From: Chloroflexota bacterium
Lineage (GTDB): Bacteria > Chloroflexota > Anaerolineae > Epilineales > SHYO01
Reading direction: 5' to 3'
Assembly (NCBI GenBank): GCA_009692745.1
Contig: SHYO01000032.1
Span: 1 to 32,350, forward strand
DNA: 32,350 nt
In this document: positions 1 to 20,839 of the stretch, piece by piece
Position numbering within the stretch: position 1 is the stretch's first letter
How the letters are laid out: every line of letters starts with the position of its first letter
Made by a program: the position numbers and the translations under genes
Notes under the pieces: generated by a model
What the model was told of the DNA's origin: nothing
Databases searched by the model: none
The model's input: only the letters and a program-made list of their open reading frames with translations

Positions 1-1
1 G

Positions 2-118
2 GTCCAGTCGGTGGAGGAGGCTTTGCAGTATTTTGCCACCCATGCCGCAGAAGTCCTGACGTTGTTCGGCTGCTATTGCCAAGAGCAGCTTGGCCTTCAA
101 CCCGAACACGCTGCCTAG
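2..118 (+). CDS. C-terminal tail of a transposase (partial, probably IS630-type)
   Basis: The reading frame is open from base 2 to a TAG at 116-118 and gives 38 residues, beginning VQSVEEALQYF and ending LGLQPEHAA. The pattern of a short Ser-Val-Glu-Glu-Ala-Leu helix, a Tyr-Phe and then an EVLTLFG stretch resembles the tail of IS630-family transposases. The stop lies two bases before a 26-bp terminal inverted repeat (120-145) that is found again as a MITE end at 20672. A transposase stopping just inside its element end is the normal arrangement. The family is an inference: the catalytic DDE core lies outside the window. The alternative is the tail of an unrelated upstream gene. Confidence 0.5.
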   Translation, partial: VQSVEEALQYFATHAAEVLTLFGCYCQEQLGLQPEHAA

Positions 119-3100
119 CTTTCTCAAAGCAAACCTATACATCTATAGTAGCGGAGCGACATCAACTTCTGCAAACTGAGGGTTACATATATCGTCAACC
201 TTACGTGGAGCTTATACCGCCTTATAAGTCTTCTAAAAAACGATTAAAGGAAGCAACCCAGAAACTCGGGTTATCAGCGGACTTAGCAGACTTCGCTGCC
301 GACGGTCTGTTCCCTGCAAAACGTCAATTATATGAACACCAGTATCAGGCCATAAAGTCTATCCAAGATGGAAGGCACGTTGTGATAACGGCCGGCACCG
401 GGTCGGGGAAGACTGAGGCGTTCCTTCTGCCTATTATCGGCGAACTTCTCAAAGAGGCGGAGACTTGGCCGCGACCCAATGCCCGGCGCGATGGATGGCG
501 TTGGTGGGAGCACGGTAATAAACGCATTCCGATACGTGATCACGAGACGCGCGATGCTGCGATCAGGGCGCTGATTTTATACCCTATGAATGCTCTCGTC
601 GAAGACCAATTGCAGCGGCTTCGTAGGTCCCTTGATGGTGATATGGCCCGAAAATGGCTGGATGAGCAACGGAACGGAAATCGCATCTACTTCGGTCGGT
701 ATACTGGCAAAACACCTGTTTCCGGCCGCGAATCTAATCCACAGAAGTGTGAAGAACTGCAAAAATTCTTCGAGAATGCCAGCGCGACTGCCGAGGCCGT
801 GGTATTCGATCCCGATCTGCGTTATTTCTTCCCGCAGGTGGATGGTTCGGAGATGCTCGCGCGCTGGGATATGCAAAATGACCCTCCCGATATCTTGATT
901 ACCAACTACAGTATGCTCAACATCATGTTGATGCGGGACAACGAAAGGCAGATGTTCGAGCAGACCAGAAAATGGCTTGAGGAAGATCCCAGCCACGTTT
1001 TTACCCTTGTCGTCGATGAGTTGCATACGTACCGAGGAACGCCAGGCACAGAAGTAGCGCTCCTACTTAGGAACCTATTGTTGCGACTTGGTTTACTCGA
1101 TAGACCTAATCAGATTCGATTCATAGCGGCTAGTGCCTCTATTGAAGATGATGATAAAGGGAGGGAGTATATCAGCCAATTCTTCGCTGCCCCACCCAAT
1201 CAATTCGATATTATCCCCGGTAAGCGCGCTTTGCCGGAAGAGCAGGACTCCCAGTCGCTCAGTATATATACTAAGCTATTCACCGATTTCCATAGAAAGG
1301 CGCAGAGAGAAGGATTGGAGCCAGCTACCAGCTATCTGGCCGAAAACCTGAAACTGACGCCGTCTGACATAGGTTATCGACGTACTTTGGCCCAGTGCTT
1401 GGAAGCGGTCAACTGTGTGCCAGCGCTACTGGCTGCATGTCTTGATTCGAAGAGCGGTACACTACATGCGAGGAGTTTCTCGGATTTAAGCATGAGGCTT
1501 CTTGGGATCGAAAACCGAGATGCACTAGCTGGGCTGCTTCTCGCACTTGCCGAGGGGCGGATTTGGGATTCAGAATTAGAAGAGGAAAAGGTTCTGCTGC
1601 CCGTCCGCATTCACTACTTCTTCCGTAATACCCAGGGTGTCTGGGCATGCTCGGACCCCAATTGTCCAAAAGTGCACTCCGACTTTCAGTGTACGGATCG
1701 CAAGGTCGGTAAGTTGTACCTCGAACCACGGATTCGATGTGATTGCGGAGCGCGAGTGCTTGACCTTCTATTCTGTCAGACCTGTGGGGATCTATTCCTC
1801 GGCGGATTCAAGAAGGCGGATCCCGACAATCGAAACACGCACTGGTATCTTTTCCCCGACTTGCCCGATCTTCAGGATTTGCCTGACGTTGCGAAGACTG
1901 CCAAGAATGCGTCGAATTACGTGATATACTGGCCATCAAAGAGTGATCCCAAGGATGATAAGCCGTGGACACGCTCGGAGCAAAAGCAGACCTACAAATT
2001 CAGCTTCCAACATGCAGAATTTAATCCATCTATGGCCGAGATACGTATTAAGAAAACAGGGCATACTGGGCGCGTATATGTGGTCGAGATGAATAAAAGT
2101 CAGGAGTTTCCCGAAGATTTTCCGCCGCTGCCCATAGAGTGCCCCCATTGCGGCGATAACCGTGAGTTTGGCAAAAAGGCAAAGGATGGGTCTTGGAGGT
2201 TGCTCATTGAGCGAACTCGTTCCCCAATAGAGGGTCAACGTACGGGTTTCACCAAAGTCAACCAGGTATTGGCAGATGCATTGCTCCGCCAACTTCCCGA
2301 GGCAAAAGAGCGCAAGCTGGTGCTGTTTTCAGACAGCCGCCAGGACGCGGCCAAGCTTTCCGCCGGCTTGGAGCAAGCCCATTATCAGGACTTGGTCCGG
2401 CAGGTAGCCTCCAGAGTCCCACTGCGATCTGGCGCCGAGATAGAAGCATATATAAAGTTTGAGCGCCGTGAGGAGATGACATCTGAAGAAGAGCGTCTTG
2501 CTGAGGAATTCAGCAATGATTATCCGCAAGATGCTAGAGCTATAAGGTTGTGGATTGAGGGTAGAGCAACAGCGGATCAGGTGAAGCGCGCAAATAAGAC
2601 TAGGCAGCGGATCGGTGGACCGGTGCGCGTATTGCAAGTGAGGGATGCCGTTGAGAAGGAGCTACTCCAGCTAGGTATTAATCCAGGAGGACCAGATCCC
2701 AAGCTACAAGGGTTTAAGGAAGAAAGGAGCTGGAAGAAATGGGTGGCACTTTACAACCTAGACCCGGAAAGGCCAGGGCGGAAACAGCCCGGAGAACTTT
2801 CCCGTGAAGCTATCGAGCACCTTCAGGATATCGATAAAGCTCTTCAAGACAATATCTCCAAGACCCTTGTTACTAGCATGCAGGGGGATTTTGAATACCT
2901 TGGGCTAGGGAGTTGCACCTTCGATCCGGATATTGATATTAAGCCTATGGCAGGCGGCCTTGACCCTGAAATACTCAAGCAAGTTTGCGATGGCACTATT
3001 CGTATGCTAGGTTCACACTACCGCCTTGAGGGTGACTTAGATGCCTCTCCCAGTGCTCCTCGTTATCTGAAACGCTATTGGCAAGAGGTGGCTAAGCTGA

Positions 3101-5538
3101 ACGGTTTCGACGCCAATCGGCTAGCAAGCACGGTACAGCATACCCTAGAACGAGCTGACGCAATAAGCGGATTCCTATTGAAGGTATCGAACCTATTTAT
3201 ACGACCCTCAGGCTCTGTAGTATGGAAATGCGTCAAGTGCCGACGTGTGCATTTGCACCCTGCTGGAGGTATTTGCACAGACGCGGACTGCTTGGTGGCA
3301 TTGCCAATAGAGGGTACTCCACTTGACGTCGGCAATCCGGCGGGAAACTACTATGTATTCTTGGTCAGAGATTCTAAGAAACCTTTCCGCTTGCACTGTG
3401 AAGAGCTAACGGGCCAAACCAACAGAGATGACGCACTTGATCGCCAACGTCTATTCCAGGGTGTCAGCCTCGCTGAGGAAATAAAGCATGTTGACGAGAT
3501 TGATTTGCTAAGTGTAACTACAACTATGGAGGCGGGAGTTGACATAGGCTCACTGCTAGCTGTCATGATGTCGAATATGCCTCCAATGCGATTCAACTAT
3601 CAGCAGCGTGTCGGGCGTGCCGGGCGACGAGGTGCTGGCGTTGCGGCAGCGCTCACCGTCTGCCGTGGTCGCAGCCATGACGACTATTACTTCCAGCATA
3701 TCGAGCGTATGACGAGTGAACCCCCTCCTCAACCATATCTTGATCTGAAACGCGAGGGAATCATTCGGAGAGTATTGAATGCAGAAATTCTAAGGCGGGC
3801 GTTTGCTCATCATTTTGCTAACACAATAAATGAGGGTCAAGACAACGTCCACGGTCAGTTTGGCCAGACCAAGGATTGGCCGGAACACAGGGACAGAATA
3901 GTCTCTTGGCTCACCGAAAATCGCCAACAGGTCAAAGAGGTGGCAGCAGCATTGCTGCGACAGACACCCGATGATATGAGGAGCCGGTGTGAATTCCTAG
4001 TAGACTATGTTATACAGGAGTTGCCGGTTGATATAGACAAAGCAATGGTAGATGAGCGCCTGACTCAGCCGGAGCTTAGTGAACGACTGGCAAATCATGG
4101 AATCCTGCCGATGTTTGGGTTTCCCACTCGTGTTCGCTTTTTGTATCATAGCAAACCTGCCCGCTATCCTTGGCCACCCGAACGGGGCGTCGTGGACCGA
4201 GTACTTGACATCGCGATTAGCCAGTTCGCTCCAGGAGCTGAGACAGTCAAAGACAAGGCCATTCATACATCAATTGGTGTGGCCAACTATCAACTCCAGG
4301 GTCCGAAACTCGTGCCTGACAGTAACCCCTTGGGACCAAAGCAGGTAGTTGGTGTTTGCCACAACTGCCATGCTCTTGACAATTCACAGGAGGACAATGG
4401 CTCCTGCCCGACCTGTGGAAGCCAGGAACAATATCATCGCCTTAACATAAGTGAACCGCGCGGTTTCCGAACAGACTATACATCAGGACGAAGCTTCGAT
4501 GGCCAATTTGAGTGGACACCACGCGCTAGCCGAGCCCGTATGTCGGCAGACTTCAATCCCAGTGAATGGATTGCCGCTCAATCCAGTCGTGTATTCTCAG
4601 GACAACAGCCTGTTTATGCTATCAACGATAAAGATGGAGACTGCTTCGAGTTTCACAAGCTAGCGGATGGCACAGGTTGGATAGATCCTACCGTCTTGCT
4701 AAATCGGGAGCGGTTTCCTCTCGACAAGTCAGTTAGACCAGAGGTGCGAGCATTAGCATCAATAACCAAGACGGATGTGCTTCTCGTGGGCCTCGACCAG
4801 AATAGGATGATGCCCGGCCTTGACTTGAGCCCCTTATCACTAGGTGGACGTGCTGCCTGGTACTCTTTCGGATTTTATATGCGTAGCGCCGCCACAAAGC
4901 TCCTTGATGTGGACCCCAACGAACTCCGAGTTGGTCTACGAACGGTGCGATACCGGGGGAAGGTAGAGGGCGAGGTCTTTATTGCTGATGCACTGGAAAA
5001 CGGAGCTGGATACTCAACACATCTAGGACATGCTGAGATATTTGCCGAACTTCTCAATCACATGCTTGTCAGCTATGGAATTGAGAGGCACGGTCCACAG
5101 CGCACACCCTGTGATAGTGCGTGCTACGACTGTCTCAAGGATTACAGTAACATGGCTTATCATGGTTTACTAGATTGGCGTCTGGCATTAGACATGACAC
5201 GACTTGCGGCAGGATTGGACATAGGATTTTTCCATCATTGGGAGGATGTGGCGGAAAAATTGATACAGGGTTTCTGCCGGGATTTCGGCTGGAGCGCAAA
5301 TCCATTTGGCCCACTCTCTGGCGCCGTCCATCCTGATGGGTCTATAGCATTAATAGCAATTCACCCTCTTTGGGATCGCAGGTTTGACCAACGGGGCGAT
5401 GATATGGCAGCGGCGGTTGTTGCTGCCGAGCAGCGCGGCTTTTTGGAGAATGGACCCAAGAGATGGATGGCGTTCGATGTCTTTGATTTATCACGTAGGC
5501 CATCATGGGTGGCAGCGCAAATATGGGAAAATTCATGA
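76..5538 (+). CDS. Giant DEAD/DEAH-box helicase with C-terminal DUF1998/MZB zinc cluster (DruE/Drm-like), 5' end cut by an insertion sequence
   Basis: This is a superfamily 2 helicase of about 1,800 residues. A region conserved in the family (QPYVELIPPYKSS, about 42-53) precedes motif I GTGSGKTE (107-114), a DELH Walker B (314-317), AASAS (about 350), and a second RecA domain with TTTMEAGVDIG and QRVGRAGRRG (about 1177). Several CxxC pairs suggest inserted zinc ribbons (about 535-570, 690, 1060 and 1430-1450). The C-terminus has the DUF1998 signature C1679-x3-C1683-x2-C1686 followed by DYSN and LLDW. Size and architecture match DruE of Druantia and the Drm helicases of DISARM, all antiphage proteins. 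The TTG at 76 is the only in-frame start before residue 44 but lies inside transposase and insertion-sequence sequence with no ribosome binding site. Native coding begins about base 148, so an unknown number of N-terminal residues is missing. It is coupled by ATGA to the nuclease gene. Frequent ATA, CTA and AGG codons suggest transfer. Confidence 0.88.
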   Translation: MPRAAWPSTRTRCLAFSKQTYTSIVAERHQLLQTEGYIYRQPYVELIPPYKSSKKRLKEATQKLGLSADLADFAADGLFPAKRQLYEHQYQAIKSIQDGRHVVITAGTGSGKTEAFLLPIIGELLKEAETWPRPNARRDGWRWWEHGNKRIPIRDHETRDAAIRALILYPMNALVEDQLQRLRRSLDGDMARKWLDEQRNGNRIYFGRYTGKTPVSGRESNPQKCEELQKFFENASATAEAVVFDPDLRYFFPQVDGSEMLARWDMQNDPPDILITNYSMLNIMLMRDNERQMFEQTRKWLEEDPSHVFTLVVDELHTYRGTPGTEVALLLRNLLLRLGLLDRPNQIRFIAASASIEDDDKGREYISQFFAAPPNQFDIIPGKRALPEEQDSQSLSIYTKLFTDFHRKAQREGLEPATSYLAENLKLTPSDIGYRRTLAQCLEAVNCVPALLAACLDSKSGTLHARSFSDLSMRLLGIENRDALAGLLLALAEGRIWDSELEEEKVLLPVRIHYFFRNTQGVWACSDPNCPKVHSDFQCTDRKVGKLYLEPRIRCDCGARVLDLLFCQTCGDLFLGGFKKADPDNRNTHWYLFPDLPDLQDLPDVAKTAKNASNYVIYWPSKSDPKDDKPWTRSEQKQTYKFSFQHAEFNPSMAEIRIKKTGHTGRVYVVEMNKSQEFPEDFPPLPIECPHCGDNREFGKKAKDGSWRLLIERTRSPIEGQRTGFTKVNQVLADALLRQLPEAKERKLVLFSDSRQDAAKLSAGLEQAHYQDLVRQVASRVPLRSGAEIEAYIKFERREEMTSEEERLAEEFSNDYPQDARAIRLWIEGRATADQVKRANKTRQRIGGPVRVLQVRDAVEKELLQLGINPGGPDPKLQGFKEERSWKKWVALYNLDPERPGRKQPGELSREAIEHLQDIDKALQDNISKTLVTSMQGDFEYLGLGSCTFDPDIDIKPMAGGLDPEILKQVCDGTIRMLGSHYRLEGDLDASPSAPRYLKRYWQEVAKLNGFDANRLASTVQHTLERADAISGFLLKVSNLFIRPSGSVVWKCVKCRRVHLHPAGGICTDADCLVALPIEGTPLDVGNPAGNYYVFLVRDSKKPFRLHCEELTGQTNRDDALDRQRLFQGVSLAEEIKHVDEIDLLSVTTTMEAGVDIGSLLAVMMSNMPPMRFNYQQRVGRAGRRGAGVAAALTVCRGRSHDDYYFQHIERMTSEPPPQPYLDLKREGIIRRVLNAEILRRAFAHHFANTINEGQDNVHGQFGQTKDWPEHRDRIVSWLTENRQQVKEVAAALLRQTPDDMRSRCEFLVDYVIQELPVDIDKAMVDERLTQPELSERLANHGILPMFGFPTRVRFLYHSKPARYPWPPERGVVDRVLDIAISQFAPGAETVKDKAIHTSIGVANYQLQGPKLVPDSNPLGPKQVVGVCHNCHALDNSQEDNGSCPTCGSQEQYHRLNISEPRGFRTDYTSGRSFDGQFEWTPRASRARMSADFNPSEWIAAQSSRVFSGQQPVYAINDKDGDCFEFHKLADGTGWIDPTVLLNRERFPLDKSVRPEVRALASITKTDVLLVGLDQNRMMPGLDLSPLSLGGRAAWYSFGFYMRSAATKLLDVDPNELRVGLRTVRYRGKVEGEVFIADALENGAGYSTHLGHAEIFAELLNHMLVSYGIERHGPQRTPCDSACYDCLKDYSNMAYHGLLDWRLALDMTRLAAGLDIGFFHHWEDVAEKLIQGFCRDFGWSANPFGPLSGAVHPDGSIALIAIHPLWDRRFDQRGDDMAAAVVAAEQRGFLENGPKRWMAFDVFDLSRRPSWVAAQIWENS
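120..145 (+). repeat. Right terminal inverted repeat of an insertion sequence
   Basis: TTTCTCAAAGCAAACCTA followed by TACATCTA. The reverse complement recurs at 20672-20697 with one mismatch, and a diverged copy lies at 20734-20759 with identical spacing. A TA dinucleotide (146-147) follows, as expected for an element of the IS630/Tc1-mariner group that duplicates TA. The repeat therefore marks the junction between the insertion sequence and the helicase gene. Confidence 0.75.
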
Positions 5539-6680
5539 GATCCCCAATATTGCTTAAAAAGCTCCCATTGGAATATGTCTCGCCAAGCCAGATCTCAACA
5601 TTGGAGACCTGCTTCCTGCAGACTGCTTTTGGGACTGCCCCCTGGTACCGCTCTCACACATTCGTGGGACCCAAAGCCCGATTGGGGCGGGTATGTCACA
5701 CGCTGTTAGAAAAAGTGCTTAAAGGCGAGTTAGACCATACTGACCGAGTCGAATGGCGTACCGAATTGGTCAAATCGTGGGATAGCCTCGTTAAGCAAGA
5801 GGAGAAGGCTGTCCAGAGTTCCCAGCTTGAAGGGCATCTTGGTCCTGCACAGAGATGGCCGGGTTACAGCATGCTACGAGCGAGAATCCTGGCTATAGGG
5901 CATGAACTGCTGGGACACCGGCAATCTGGATCGGTCGGGGGCGGCACGTTTCGTTCCGAAGTATGGTTCTCAGCATATGGGGGTAAACTACATGGGCGAG
6001 CCGATGTGGTACGCATCTCGCCATCTGGGGTCGAACTTGAAGACTATAAGACGGGCGAGGTTTACGAGCAGGCAGATAACCTATCCCAAATTGTGAAGCC
6101 GCAGTACCTTCGGCAGTTGCTGCTGTATGCGGCCATGTACCACGATACAGCAGGTGAATGGCCGGTGCGAGCCTATTTGGTCCCTCTGACCGGAGGCAAA
6201 ATCAGCATCACGATTGACCCAGCGGAAGCGGAGGGAGAGGCCCAGAAAGCCCTGATCTCGTTATCCGCCTATAACAAGAGTATTGCAGCCGCGCCTGCAA
6301 TGGAGTTGCTGGCCTCCCCTAGTGCTGCCAGTTGTCGCTTTTGTGCCTACAAAGCCTTCTGCGAGCCATTCTGGTCAGACGCTTCTGCCTCTTGGGAGTG
6401 GCAGTCCAGTATAGCTCTCGAAGGTGTAGTTCTTAGTAGTCGTTTAAGCCAGATTGGGGAATTCCTGCTAGAGGTGCAGGCGCATCGCGGTAGTGTGGTT
6501 AACGGTGTGTACAAGATCAGCGGGATTCGGACTCTCAATCTCGAGGTTGGCGAGTATGTTCGTCTTTTGAATCTATATCCCAATCAATCGGGAGGGGAGC
6601 GGGAACTAAGGATCACCGATTACACGGAGATATGGCGGCAGTCAGCATATCCTCAAAGCGCGGAAGATACACTACGGTAA
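5535..6680 (+). CDS. PD-(D/E)XK nuclease, Cas4/RecB-like, with Fe-S cysteines and an extra C-terminal domain
   Basis: The protein has 381 residues. It starts at an ATG whose last two bases form the helicase TGA stop (ATGA), with GGGAAAA upstream; an in-frame ATG at 5505 would add ten unlikely residues. The N-terminus SPSQISTLETCFLQ resembles the first Cys segment of Cas4/AddB-type nucleases. The core is HGRADVV, then an EDYK active-site strand (ELEDYKTGE), then a QLLLYAAMY motif IV helix. It ends in CRFCAYKAFC, so four Cys are available for a 4Fe-4S cluster. About 110 more residues follow (GVVLSSRLSQIGEFLLEVQ and onward) and look like an OB-type beta domain. DNA cleavage or end processing with the helicase is inferred from the coupling. 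I do not recognise a named defence system with exactly this pair. Confidence 0.85.
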   Translation: MRSPILLKKLPLEYVSPSQISTLETCFLQTAFGTAPWYRSHTFVGPKARLGRVCHTLLEKVLKGELDHTDRVEWRTELVKSWDSLVKQEEKAVQSSQLEGHLGPAQRWPGYSMLRARILAIGHELLGHRQSGSVGGGTFRSEVWFSAYGGKLHGRADVVRISPSGVELEDYKTGEVYEQADNLSQIVKPQYLRQLLLYAAMYHDTAGEWPVRAYLVPLTGGKISITIDPAEAEGEAQKALISLSAYNKSIAAAPAMELLASPSAASCRFCAYKAFCEPFWSDASASWEWQSSIALEGVVLSSRLSQIGEFLLEVQAHRGSVVNGVYKISGIRTLNLEVGEYVRLLNLYPNQSGGERELRITDYTEIWRQSAYPQSAEDTLR

Positions 6681-7306: not shown

Positions 7307-7761
7307 TTTTAGCCTTTATCCTCATCCAGGTCAAACACACAGCGCGGGTGGAAAGTGCCCCCGCGTTTTTAAGGCAGGACAATTTGGAAAAATGTCCTAC
7401 TGGTCCCCTCACCCAATCCTCCTTCGCTTCGCCACGTACGCCGTCCATCCCAGGCAGAGCAATCCCTTCTAACGAGGGCGCCGCAAACCAGGCGGCGGCA
7501 GGGTGTCTTTTATAGAGGGCTGGGCGGTGACAACCGTACCAGCCCCTCTATATATAATCTAATAAAATCTAGAGAAATTTAAGGTTGGCAGAGCCGCCAT
7601 TTCTATCTGTTTTGATGCTGTTTCAGCCGGATTTTTGAGCCGTTTTTACCCCAATGTTAAAAGGATTGCCTGCAACCCCCCGTAAATCTGCCTACAACCC
7701 CCCGTAAATCCCGGCGCCGGCGCACCCCGGCTGGAGCCGGGGGAGGGGATGTGGCTAACCC
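7307..7761. other. Intergenic stretch made largely of duplicated non-coding DNA
   Basis: This stretch holds the hairpin at 7343-7370, the palindrome GGACAATTTggAAAAATGTCC (7377-7397), a short third copy of the cyclotransferase gene end (TTCGCTTCGCCACGTACG, around 7424-7441), and from about 7450 the duplicated segment. Within that segment a 22-bp unit containing CAACCCCCCGTAAATC is present twice in tandem (about 7669-7712), where the other copy has it once. Confidence 0.6.
7343..7370 (+). terminator. Possible rho-independent terminator
   Basis: CGCGGG (7343-7348) pairs with CCCGCG (7360-7365) and five T follow on the + strand. No rightward gene ends close by; the nearest is the nuclease at 6680. 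It could also act in the leader region of the leftward small protein. Confidence 0.4.
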
Positions 7762-8083
7762 TCACCCTGTCAGCTTCTTCCGCTTCGCCACGTACGCGCG
7801 AGCGGCCTCCAGATCCGCGGCGCCGCCGGCTAGGCGGTAGGGCTCCGTCAGCGGGGTGACATGCCGTGGCGGATGGCGTCCGCCAGGTAACGGATGCTGT
7901 CCCAGTTCTACGGGTAGGTCTTGGCGGCAGGTTGCGCTTGGCCCACTCCGCCGACTGCGATCCTCTCTTGCGGAGAGGTATGGTCGTCGCACATGTCCAG
8001 ATAATTGGGCACTAGCACGGCACAGAGCACCTGGTCCATTCCAGCTAGCGGCCGGCTTTCGATTCCGACGGGGTCCCCTTGCG
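7450..8083. repeat. Direct duplication, copy A (degraded)
   Basis: From about 7450 the sequence follows 8581 onward almost base for base for roughly 300 bp (for example AATCCCTTCTAACGAGGGCG). It then runs on into a diverged copy of the cyclotransferase gene. The offset is 1,131 bp at the start and 1,109 bp at the gene stop codon; the 22-bp difference is the tandem unit present twice in this copy. Confidence 0.9.
7762..8083 (-). pseudogene. Degraded duplicate of the gamma-glutamylcyclotransferase-like gene
   Basis: The C-terminal part matches the intact gene at 8871-9524: both end in a YVAKRKKL stretch followed by TG or KG. Further upstream it retains recognisable pieces corresponding to TPLTEPY, to the VLYTVLQ region and to the segment read as GKDDAVVIESLA, but these are broken by stops, small deletions and a missing stretch. 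The 5' half is absent. Homology fades at about 8083, immediately beside the damaged end of the hicA gene. It is certainly non-functional. It appears to be a segmental duplication of the gene with its 3' flank, followed by decay. Confidence 0.85.
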
Positions 8084-8094
8084 CTAAATAGTAG

Positions 8095-8256
8095 CTATAG
8101 CGTGCCGATTTTCAGATCCTTACTACCCCAATCCGGTATAGGCGCAATTTTGCCATTGGCGGGATTGTGCCATTTGCGATGCGAGCCACCGCCTCGGCGT
8201 GGAATTTCCTGGCAGCCGAGTTTGTGGAGTTTCGAGCTTACTTCCCGGTACTTCAA
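8095..8256 (-). CDS. hicA: HicA-family mRNA interferase toxin, C-terminus lost
   Basis: This 53-residue frame starts at a TTG that overlaps the hicB stop as TTGA, so it is translationally coupled. It reads LKYREVSSKLHKLGCQEIPR, then RGGGSHRKWHNP, then ANGKIAPIPDWGSKDLKIGT and L before a TAG. GGGSH with its His is the catalytic motif of HicA, a small dsRBD-fold toxin that cleaves mRNA. Family members usually continue after KDLKxGTL with a final helix beginning R-A. Here that helix is missing. The next bases read GCT ACT ATT (A-T-I) after a one-base shift, which points to a frameshift next to the degraded duplication. The toxin may be weakened or inactive. The hicB-hicA order is common in Chloroflexota and cyanobacteria. 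Confidence 0.82.
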   Translation of the reverse strand: MKYREVSSKLHKLGCQEIPRRGGGSHRKWHNPANGKIAPIPDWGSKDLKIGTL

Positions 8257-8510
8257 GCTGAGGTCACCTGCACCAAAGTTTCTATCCAGAGAGGGGCGTC
8301 TGGGGATAAAGGTTGCAAGACCGGTGGCAGCGGCTGATGCAAATCTTCAAACGCTTCTATAATAGCCGCTAAGGCATCTGACACATTCGGTAATACGTCA
8401 TCTAGTGTATCGGCCTCCGTCACCAACTCAGGCAGCAGGGGGCAGGTGATGGTGTAACCGCCTTCTGGTTGTGGTTCCAAAACGAGCGGAAGTTTGTATA
8501 TATTTTCCAC
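8253..8510 (-). CDS. hicB: HicB-family antitoxin
   Basis: The protein has 85 residues beginning MENIYKLPLVLEPQPEGGYT. It has the HicB partial-RNaseH fold pattern: a strand LVLEPQPEGGYTITCPLLPE, then LVTEADTLDDVLPNVSDALA, then a helix AIIEAFEDLHQPLP. It is the short COG1598 type without an obvious C-terminal DNA-binding domain. The start is the GTG at 8510, with GGAGG seven bases upstream. It overlaps the hicA start by four bases. HicB binds and neutralises HicA and usually represses the operon; neither activity can be read directly here. Because the toxin is damaged, the antitoxin may be a relic. Confidence 0.88.
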   Translation of the reverse strand: MENIYKLPLVLEPQPEGGYTITCPLLPELVTEADTLDDVLPNVSDALAAIIEAFEDLHQPLPPVLQPLSPDAPLWIETLVQVTSA

Positions 8511-8580
8511 AGTATGCCTCCGGCAATGCTTATCTTTGCTGGCAATGGTAGCACAGGTCAGTCGTTTGTAAAAGGCTGAA

Positions 8581-9216
8581 CCTGGCAGGACAATCCCTTC
8601 TAACGAGGGCGCCGCAAACCAGGCGGCGGCAGGGTGTCTTTTATAGAGGGCTGGGCGGTGACAACCGTACCAGCCCCTCTATATATAATCTATTAAAATC
8701 TAGGGAAATTTAAGGTTGGCGGAGCTGCCATTTCACTCTGTTTTTATGCTGTTTCAGCCGGATTTTTGACCTGTTTTTACCCCAATGTTAAAAGGCTTGC
8801 CCATTACCCCCCGTAAATCCCGGCGCCGGCGCACCCCGGCTGGAGACTGAGAATGGGATGTGGCCAACCCTCACCCTTTCAACTTCTTCCGCTTCGCCAC
8901 GTACTCGCGCGCTGCCTCCAGATCCGCCGCGCGCCCTGCCAGGTGCAGGATGGCCTGCTTATAGGGCTCGGTCAGCGGGGTGACGATGCCGTGGCGGATG
9001 GCGTCCGCCAGGTAGCGGATGCCGTCGCGGTGCTCGGCGTAGGTCTCGGCGGTCACGCTGTTACGCGCCAATTTGGCCAGCTTCTCGGCTTTCTCTGCGA
9101 GGGATAAATTGGCATTCAGGATCTCGGCAAAGTTGAGCTGCAGCACGGTATAGAGCACCTGGGGAATCCCTCCCAGGGCCAGGCTCTCGATTACCACGGC
9201 GTCATCCTTGCCGCGC
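8581..9216. repeat. Direct duplication, copy B (with intact gene)
   Basis: This is the partner of 7450-8083. The non-coding part at 8581-8870 is close to identical to 7450-7761, and the homology continues into the 3' two thirds of the cyclotransferase gene. The 350-bp gap between hicB (8510) and the gene end (8871) holds only this repeat plus the hicB promoter region. Confidence 0.9.
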
Positions 9217-9524
9217 TGGCTGCCTTCATCGTATGAGTGATCCAGTTGCCCGACCTTATTGATCTCGCGCCGGTAGAGCATGTCGCAGGCGGCGGCCGCG
9301 GTGACGCTCCCGTCCAGCACCAGGATGTAGGCGGCCACCGAGCTGCCGTGCCCCGGCGGCACCTTGACCAGCGTGGGGGCTCCGCCGCGCGACCGGCTGC
9401 GGCGAGCGTACTCGACCGGGAAGGGGGTTTGGATGGGAATGCGCTTGATGATATGCGCCTCTAACTCGGCGCCAGGATCTTCGATTAATGAGCCGTACGC
9501 CAAAATACCCAGATTATCAGCCAT
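8871..9524 (-). CDS. Gamma-glutamylcyclotransferase-fold (GGCT/AIG2-like) protein
   Basis: The protein has 217 residues. The N-terminus NLGILAYGSLIEDPGAELE carries the YGSL signature of the GGCT fold, which binds substrate amino groups at the loop after strand 1. VEYARRSRSRGGAPTLVKV and VAAYILVLDGSVTAAAACDML match the next core strands. The C-terminal third is helical (LSLAEKAEKLAKLARNSV onward) and ends AREYVAKRKKLKG. The start ATG at 9524 follows AAGGAGATAGC. Family enzymes release 5-oxoproline from gamma-glutamyl compounds; the substrate here is unknown. A degraded duplicate of the gene lies at 7762-8083. Confidence 0.75.
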   Translation of the reverse strand: MADNLGILAYGSLIEDPGAELEAHIIKRIPIQTPFPVEYARRSRSRGGAPTLVKVPPGHGSSVAAYILVLDGSVTAAAACDMLYRREINKVGQLDHSYDEGSQRGKDDAVVIESLALGGIPQVLYTVLQLNFAEILNANLSLAEKAEKLAKLARNSVTAETYAEHRDGIRYLADAIRHGIVTPLTEPYKQAILHLAGRAADLEAAREYVAKRKKLKG

Positions 9525-20161: not shown

Positions 20162-20839
20162 TTATCCCTTGTTCTGCTGCGCGGCACGCAAAGTGGATAG
20201 TTCCCGTTCGATGCGTTCCAATTTCTCTAACAGTTCCTTATGGCGCATCAATTCCAGCGGCGGCTCCTTCTTAGTAAAAGAAATCACGCCATCCGGCTCC
20301 AGGGTAGCCTTATCCACCTCGTCCAGGGTATCGAATCCCTGCTTATGGGCGGCGCTCTCCAGGTCAAGCCTGGTAATCAGTTCCTTTTCCAACCGATCCT
20401 GCACGATTTTCCCGTTTTCAATAAGCACCGTAGGTTCGCCTTCAACCACCTTTTCAAGCTGCTGATTCTGATAAACCAACCGCACCACCAGGTAGTTAAT
20501 AAGCAACAAGGTTGCGGCCCCGATGAGGCCGCCGATCACTGAAGTATCCTCACCAATGATGGCATTTTGGACGGTATTAGATAAGGTCAGCAGTACCACC
20601 AGGTCAAAGGGGTTAAGCTGGGCCAGCTCCCGCTTGCCGGACAGCCGCAAGGCGACAATCAGGAACAAATATAGATGTTTAGGTTTGCTTTGAGAAAATC
20701 TATTCAATTTTCGAGGCTAAAAGCTACCAACAGTTTCTCAATTCATTTCTGAACATCTATAGACAAGGACCGGCCGTAAAATTTTCTCCAATAGCGGGAT
20801 GCCCAACTGAAACATATCAGACCAAATTTTCGGGTCCAT
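20162..20839 (-). pseudogene. DUF421 (YetF-like) membrane protein gene split by a MITE
   Basis: The ATG at 20839 begins MDPKIWSDMFQLGIPLLEKI, then LRPVLVY, where the reading frame enters the MITE (20672-20759) and soon stops. On the other side LFLIVALRLSGKRELAQLNP continues with FDLVVLLTLSNTVQNAIIGE, a second membrane helix and the soluble DUF421 domain (EGEPTVLIENGKIVQDRLEK), ending in a charged coiled coil. Removing the MITE and one TA restores an unbroken ORF through VLVY and LFLIV. A TTG at 20707 inside the element could start a 181-residue protein lacking most of the first helix, but this is unlikely to be functional. DUF421 proteins are small membrane proteins of unclear function. Confidence 0.88.
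20672..20759. mobile_element. 88-bp MITE of IS630/Tc1-mariner type, inserted in the DUF421 gene
   Basis: The left end TAGATGTTTAGG (from 20672) and the reverse complement of the right end (from 20759), TAGATGTTCAGA, belong to 26-bp inverted repeats with 20 matching positions; both finish in TTGAGAAA. TA occurs at each side (20670-20671 and 20760-20761). Excision of the element with one TA restores the DUF421 reading frame. The 36-bp interior has no coding capacity. The left repeat matches the insertion-sequence end at 120-145 with one mismatch, so that element is the probable source of transposase. Confidence 0.85.

What the first reader, a model, noticed from the sequence alone, without database searches (positions are those of the whole stretch)
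146..6680. Coupled DUF1998 super-helicase and Fe-S PD-(D/E)XK nuclease: candidate two-gene antiviral system
The sequence shows a helicase of about 1,800 residues with DELH, QRVGRAGRRG and a C-terminal C-x3-C-x2-C cluster, coupled by ATGA to a 381-residue nuclease with EDYK and four Cys. Established knowledge: DruE (Druantia) and the Drm helicases (DISARM) are antiphage proteins with DUF1998. Inference: the nuclease partner plus its C-terminal OB-like domain is a different pairing from the named Druantia types. AT-richer codons and flanking mobile DNA fit a transferred defence locus.
Basis: partly seen in the sequence, partly recalled or inferred. Interest (0 to 1): 0.78.

Follow-up and report, generated by a model that had tools for sequence, protein, structure and literature searches.

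The report
IS-truncated Druantia type IV-like antiphage locus
The two genes are the helicase (DruE) and the nuclease (DruK) of Druantia, an already named bacterial antiphage family, and a jumping gene has cut off the start of the helicase gene, so this copy is probably a broken remnant of a known four-gene system and not a new two-gene one.

Summary
A YprA/MrfA-type helicase of about 1,800 residues is joined by ATGA (5535-5538) to a 381-residue PD-(D/E)XK nuclease with four invariant Cys. Both match named PADLOC families: DruE4 (1895 bits) and DruK (88 bits). The pair recurs: 37 of 80 DruE loci drawn without regard to DruK, from at least ten phyla, carry DruK directly downstream. It is never a two-gene system there. 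All 36 with visible upstream DNA have a DruF- and/or DruL-like gene before druE, and the window's nearest kin are DruF-DruL-DruE, the gene set published as Druantia type IV. In the window those genes are missing because bases 1-148 are the end of an insertion sequence (found at four other contig ends), which replaces about 30 N-terminal codons of druE. DruF and DruL were not found elsewhere in the 83%-complete assembly. So this is a probably inactive remnant of a Druantia type IV-like operon. DruK has an uncharacterised but well supported Cas4/AddB/Dna2-like Fe-S nuclease fold with a C-terminal OB domain. The best reading is that DruE opens 3'-tailed phage DNA and DruK cuts the exposed strand. 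That mechanism is inferred, not tested.

The parts
1..148 (+). Right end of an insertion sequence: C-terminal 38 codons of a putative transposase (frame 2, stop at 116-118) and terminal repeat TCTCAAAGCAAACCTATACATCTATAG at 122-148
   Evidence: 97-99% copies at the ends of contigs C113, C99, C76 and C32, all diverging just after ...ATCTATAG
148..5538 (+). druE (DruE4-type YprA/MrfA helicase), 5'-truncated by about 30 codons; remaining frame open, about 1,796 codons
   Evidence: PADLOC DruE4 1895 bits over nearly the full profile; Pfam DEAD, Helicase_C, MZB; N-terminus compared with L036/L038
394..417 (+). Walker A, GTGSGKTE (RecA1)
   Evidence: invariant in alignment A2
1015..1026 (+). DELH (Walker B, motif II)
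3511..3633 (+). RecA2 motifs SVTTTMEAGVDIG and QRVGRAGRRG
   Evidence: mostly invariant in A2
5110..5133 (+). DUF1998/MZB cysteines C-x3-C-x2-C
   Evidence: C159, C163, C166 invariant in A6
5535..6680 (+). druK, Cas4/AddB-like Fe-S PD-(D/E)XK nuclease, 381 aa, start codon overlapping the druE stop (ATGA)
   Evidence: Pfam PDDEXK_1 8e-19; PADLOC DruK 1e-25
5610..5612 (+). First Fe-S cysteine (C26)
   Evidence: invariant in 37 homologues
5994..6050 (+). Catalytic GR-x-D and E-D-x-K motifs
   Evidence: G157, D160, D173, K175 (A5 numbering) invariant in 37 homologues
6333..6362 (+). C-x2-C-x5-C, the other three Fe-S cysteines
   Evidence: C270, C273, C279 (A5 numbering) invariant
6411..6641 (+). 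C-terminal OB-fold-like beta-barrel of DruK
   Evidence: AF2 strands at residues 296-372 of the model; Foldseek hits to RecO, Teb1, HIN, SSB

Best explanation
The pair is the 3' half of a Druantia operon of the type IV kind (gene order druF-druL-druE-druK in relatives), truncated by an insertion sequence that removed or displaced druF, druL and about 30 N-terminal codons of druE. In intact relatives the likely mechanism is: DruF and DruL sense or license; DruE, a YprA-type SF2 helicase, loads on 3'-tailed or branched phage replication DNA and unwinds it; DruK, a four-cysteine Fe-S PD-(D/E)XK nuclease of the Cas4/AddB/Dna2 sort whose OB domain can hold the strand, cuts the exposed ssDNA. Shown here: family membership of both proteins, conserved catalytic and Fe-S residues, recurrent start/stop-overlapped pairing, upstream DruF/DruL in relatives, and the insertion-sequence junction. 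Inferred: complex formation, substrate, role of DruF/DruL, and loss of function of this copy.
For: DruE4 1895 bits and DruK 88 bits. PADLOC-DB accessions of DruE4, DruF4, DruL4 and DruK models run consecutively, PDLC00051-60. 37 of 80 DruE loci, chosen by DruE alone, carry DruK next door; of all 43 pairs 41 lie within 60 bp and 16 share the exact 4-bp overlap. All five strong DruK hits in 400 genomes of the phylum sit beside DruE. All 36 named DruK loci with visible upstream DNA have a DruF- and/or DruL-like gene. DruE and DruK distances correlate, Mantel r 0.957, 0 of 2000 permutations. Catalytic and Fe-S residues invariant in 37 DruK. Fold: ACE1/Cas4, Dna2, AddAB, plus OB; the profile hits UvrD/Rep-type helicase-nucleases and Dna2. 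DruE resembles solved helicase 9wae, E 5e-175. Type III DruE unwinds 3'-overhang DNA (PMC13192584). IS junction.
Against: DruF and DruL were not found in the rest of this assembly by single queries or profiles, so membership of this copy in type IV rests on relatives. DruK is not in the text of the paper that defines type IV (PMC8565338) and no Druantia paper in the library names it. DruK is patchy: 11 changes on the DruE tree (27.9 for shuffled labels), and two of the window's three nearest kin lack it, so it may be an accessory and not a core part. No phage test of a DruK-bearing system was found.
Confidence: 0.82

Rival explanations
1. The locus is a genuine stand-alone two-gene helicase-nuclease defence system.
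For: The two genes are overlapped and co-diverge; DruF and DruL were not found in the assembly.
Against: None of the 38 DruK-bearing relatives with visible upstream DNA is two-gene; 36 have DruF/DruL-like genes and two have DruA. The window's druE begins at an insertion-sequence junction.
Confidence: 0.06
2. The system is functional in the cell: the contig end is only an assembly break and the missing 5' part lies on an unbinned contig, with druE expressed from another copy or from an insertion-sequence promoter.
For: The bin is 83% complete; all copies of the repeat lie at contig ends, a usual assembly break; the rest of druE and druK is open.
Against: The repeat ends exactly where druE homology begins, about 30 codons late, so the insertion lies inside the gene. 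The next in-frame start is GTG at 205, about 48 codons late.
Confidence: 0.12
3. DruE and DruK are a DNA-repair helicase-nuclease (MrfAB/AddAB-like) and not a defence system.
For: MrfA and YprA are repair proteins (PMC12458937); DruK resembles AddAB and Dna2 nucleases.
Against: The best models are Druantia ones by a wide margin; the DruE is patchy, with no close homologue in 59 related genomes, and AT-rich against its neighbours; relatives carry DruF and DruL, which have no repair role known to me.
Confidence: 0.07

Closest known systems
Druantia type IV (PADLOC; Payne et al. 2021, PMC8565338: DruE, DruF, DruL)
   Same: Best DruE model is DruE4; the nearest relatives L036 and L038 are DruF-DruL-DruE, and L036 has best hits to DruF4 and DruL4 models; DruK is a PADLOC-DB model
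   Different: DruF and DruL not present in the window or found in the assembly; DruK is not mentioned in the defining paper's text; druE is cut by an insertion sequence
Druantia type II (DruM, DruF, DruG, DruE; Bell et al. PMC12458937 call it Type IV CoCoNuT)
   Same: DruE2 models score nearly as high (1699 bits); Bacteroidota relatives carry fused DruF-DruL, DruE, DruK and a methylase-cluster gene (DruM-like in L060)
   Different: No DruM or DruG seen in the window
Druantia type III (DruH-DruE)
   Same: YprA-type helicase at the core
   Different: DruE3 scores are far lower; type III DruE bears its own PLD nuclease and pairs with DruH, which is absent here
Cas4 / ACE1 / AddAB / Dna2 nuclease family
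   Same: Four-cysteine Fe-S PD-(D/E)XK fold, GR-x-D and D-x-K motifs, nearly invariant Q and invariant Y
   Different: Separate gene overlapped to a YprA-type helicase, with an added C-terminal OB domain

Membership tests
Druantia (any type) | DruE: YprA/MrfA-type SF2 helicase with DUF1998/MZB domain | tested here: met
   DruE4 1895 bits, Pfam DEAD + Helicase_C + MZB
Druantia type IV | DruF encoded with DruE | tested here: inconclusive
   Not found in the window or the assembly, but the contig starts inside an insertion sequence in druE and the bin is 83% complete; present in the nearest relatives L036 and L038
Druantia type IV | DruL encoded with DruE | tested here: inconclusive
   Not found with the same reservation; present in L036 and L038
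Druantia type IV | Lacks DruM and DruG | tested here: inconclusive
   The other main window ORFs scanned with Pfam include no C5 methylase, but the upstream side is not visible and no DruG model was run on the neighbours
DruK (PADLOC-DB 2.0.0) | PD-(D/E)XK nuclease matching DruK models next to DruE | tested here: met
   PDLC00060 1e-25, PDLC00059 1.4e-25; adjacent by ATGA
Fe-S PD-(D/E)XK nuclease (Cas4/AddB/Dna2 type) | One N-terminal and three C-terminal cysteines plus D, D/E-x-K and Q/Y | tested here: met
   Invariant in 37 homologues apart from Q197, which is at 90% or more; fold match
Fe-S PD-(D/E)XK nuclease (Cas4/AddB/Dna2 type) | Binds an iron-sulphur cluster and cuts DNA | not testable with these tools
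   needs purified protein
Druantia type III | DruH partner and PLD domains in DruE | tested here: not met
   DruE3 models at most 447 bits in five pieces; DruK, not DruH, follows; Pfam shows no PLD domain
Stand-alone two-gene system | DruE-DruK recurring without other partners | tested here: not met
   0 of 38 relatives with visible upstream DNA

The most novel reading that the evidence does not exclude
DruK is a mobile nuclease module that supplies DNA cleavage in trans to DruE helicases lacking an active nuclease domain of their own. It crosses Druantia types (DruF/DruL-DruE-DruK, DruF2-DruE-DruK, and the hybrid DruA-DruE-DruK of L033 and L034) and so defines an undescribed Druantia subtype with a Cas4-like Fe-S effector.
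Probability: 0.4. Interest if true: 0.5.

Novelty: new member of a known kind. Interest (0 to 1): 0.3.

Why it matters
It corrects a tempting 'new two-gene system' to a truncated Druantia type IV-like operon. It also points at a component, DruK, that has a profile name but no description in the papers searched: a Fe-S Cas4/AddB-like nuclease overlapped to DruE in at least ten phyla. If DruK is the cutting arm of these systems, it would explain where nuclease activity comes from in Druantia types whose DruE nuclease domain is reported as inactivated (PMC12458937).

Tried and rejected
(1) The single DruK protein as a probe of genome contigs found nothing; an alignment of DruE worked. (2) The missing druF/druL were sought in the own genome by two proteins and two profiles: none. 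The tool gave no positive control for those empty answers; the same profiles do detect DruF/DruL in the relatives' loci, from which they were partly built. (3) The transposase C-terminus against plasmids: no match, so the insertion-sequence family is not named. (4) The fold of the DruE C-terminal 300 residues gave only MrfA DUF1998 hits and weak XisH hits at poor E-values, so the published 'inactivated Vsr' domain could be neither confirmed nor denied here. (5) DruK in plasmids: one record, Meiothermus taiwanensis, at the end of a DruE-like hit. (6) No tRNA or Rfam family in the window. (7) Literature: 'DruK' appears in no paper about Druantia in the library. (8) PADLOC scan of neighbours in L036 and L038 found one restriction enzyme beside L036 and nothing beside L038.

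Full report
What is there. The open frame from the contig start to 5538 encodes a YprA/MrfA-type helicase. It overlaps by ATGA (5535-5538) a 381-codon gene with a PDDEXK_1 domain. PADLOC-DB gives DruE4 at 1895 bits over nearly the whole profile for the first and DruK at 88 bits for the second. The frame stays open over about 1,800 codons, the DruE4 match is nearly full length, and DruK keeps its catalytic and Fe-S residues, which excludes chance.

The gene start is not a gene start. Bases 1-148 occur at 97-99% identity at the ends of four other contigs of the same assembly, and all copies diverge immediately after ...ACATCTATAG. Frame 2 of this stretch reads like a protein C-terminus ending at 116-118, followed by a terminal repeat, so this is the right end of an insertion sequence. 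DruE homology begins at the next codon. In L036 and L038, whose helicases share 48-49% identity with the window's, the matching residue is about the 31st, so roughly 30 N-terminal residues are missing. The best solved relative (9wae) aligns from its residue 49 to the third codon after the junction, which agrees. According to PMC12458937 the N-terminal strand of YprA helicases inserts into RecA2, so the truncation is probably damaging. The next in-frame start codon is a GTG at 205.

What it belongs to. Eighty loci were drawn from a public genome collection by DruE similarity alone. In 37 of them a DruK homologue lies directly after DruE. Named hosts include Bacteroidota, Actinomycetota, Bacillota, Ignavibacteriota, Acidobacteriota, Chloroflexota, Omnitrophota, Gemmatimonadota, Pseudomonadota and Myxococcota. 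In the converse test, all five strong DruK hits in 400 genomes of the window's phylum lie beside DruE. All 36 named DruK loci with visible upstream DNA have a DruF- and/or DruL-like gene before druE: separate genes in 11, a DruF-DruL fusion in 19, and a DruF2-type cluster in 6 (in L040 only DruL was called, and four of the last six rest on clustering with the PADLOC-confirmed L085 and L109). Two further loci, L033 and L034, carry DruA instead. The nearest helicases, L036 and L038, are DruF-DruL-DruE without DruK. DruE plus DruF plus DruL, without DruM and DruG, is the published definition of Druantia type IV (PMC8565338). The PADLOC-DB accessions of DruE4, DruF4, DruL4 and DruK run consecutively, PDLC00051 to PDLC00060, which suggests they were built as one set; the system definition file itself could not be read.

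In this genome. DruF and DruL were not found elsewhere by single queries or profiles; the bin is 83% complete, so loss and non-recovery cannot be told apart. The 59 nearest other genomes searched hold no close DruE homologue; the best is 38% over a fragment. GC3 is 0.51-0.55 in the pair against 0.66-0.70 in six other window genes. Both fit horizontal transfer. The rest of the window is ordinary metabolism: malic enzyme, a histone deacetylase family protein, subtilase, nitrilase family, DHDPS family, an oxidoreductase.

The nuclease. Across 37 DruK proteins as little as 15% identical to the window's, C29, H58, E145, D160, D173, K175, Y201, C270, C273 and C279 (A5 numbering; subtract 3 for the 381-aa protein) are invariant. 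A confident model (mean pLDDT 89.8) matches the Argonaute-associated Cas4 proteins ACE1, Dna2 and AddAB, and its C-terminal barrel matches OB folds. DruE and DruK distances are strongly correlated (Mantel r 0.957, 0 of 2000 permutations), though shared ancestry of the hosts contributes to that. DruK presence needs 11 changes on the DruE tree against 27.9 for shuffled labels: clustered, yet gained or lost repeatedly, so it is better called a recurrent partner than a universal core. Some 'no DruK' labels may reflect contig ends (L052 has a DruK cut off by one).

Mechanism. Type III DruE prefers 3'-tailed and forked DNA and acts on replication intermediates (PMC13192584). PMC12458937 reports that the C-terminal nuclease domain of type I and II DruE is predicted inactive. 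A separate Fe-S nuclease coupled to such a helicase is most simply read as the cutting arm. That is inference; no experiment on DruK was found.

Judgement. The finding is real but is a truncated member of a named defence family. The part worth following is DruK itself.

Noticed in passing
L033 (9024-16925, -) and L034 (7914-15873, +): DruA-DruE-DruK gene order: a type I-like DruA and DruE1-like helicase joined to DruK, a combination that matches no Druantia type I have read of.
   Followed up: partly
L060-L065, L067-L069, L075, L077-L082, L084, L090, L113: Bacteroidota and Ignavibacteriota loci with DruF and DruL fused in one gene, then DruE and DruK; most have a methylase-cluster gene next (DruM-like by profile in L060).
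   Followed up: partly
window 20669-20695 (-): A second, single-mismatch copy of the insertion-sequence terminal repeat, preceded by TTAGCCTCGAAAATTGAATAGATTT as in contigs C122 and C212: a related element end or MITE-like relic.
   Followed up: partly
window 7450-9052: Direct repeat of at least three blocks (239, 146 and 67 nt, 87-93% identical, spacing about 1.1 kb): a partial tandem duplication that includes part of the 217-aa gene at 8871-9524.
   Followed up: no
L035 1-120: The nearest DruK-bearing relative also has its druE cut off at a contig start, with no recognisable N-terminus; possibly the same kind of break.
   Followed up: no
PDB 9wae and 9tu7 series: Two sets of solved helicases (1970 and 2108 aa) match this DruE at E 5e-175 and 2e-44; no paper for 9wae was identified in the library.
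   Followed up: no
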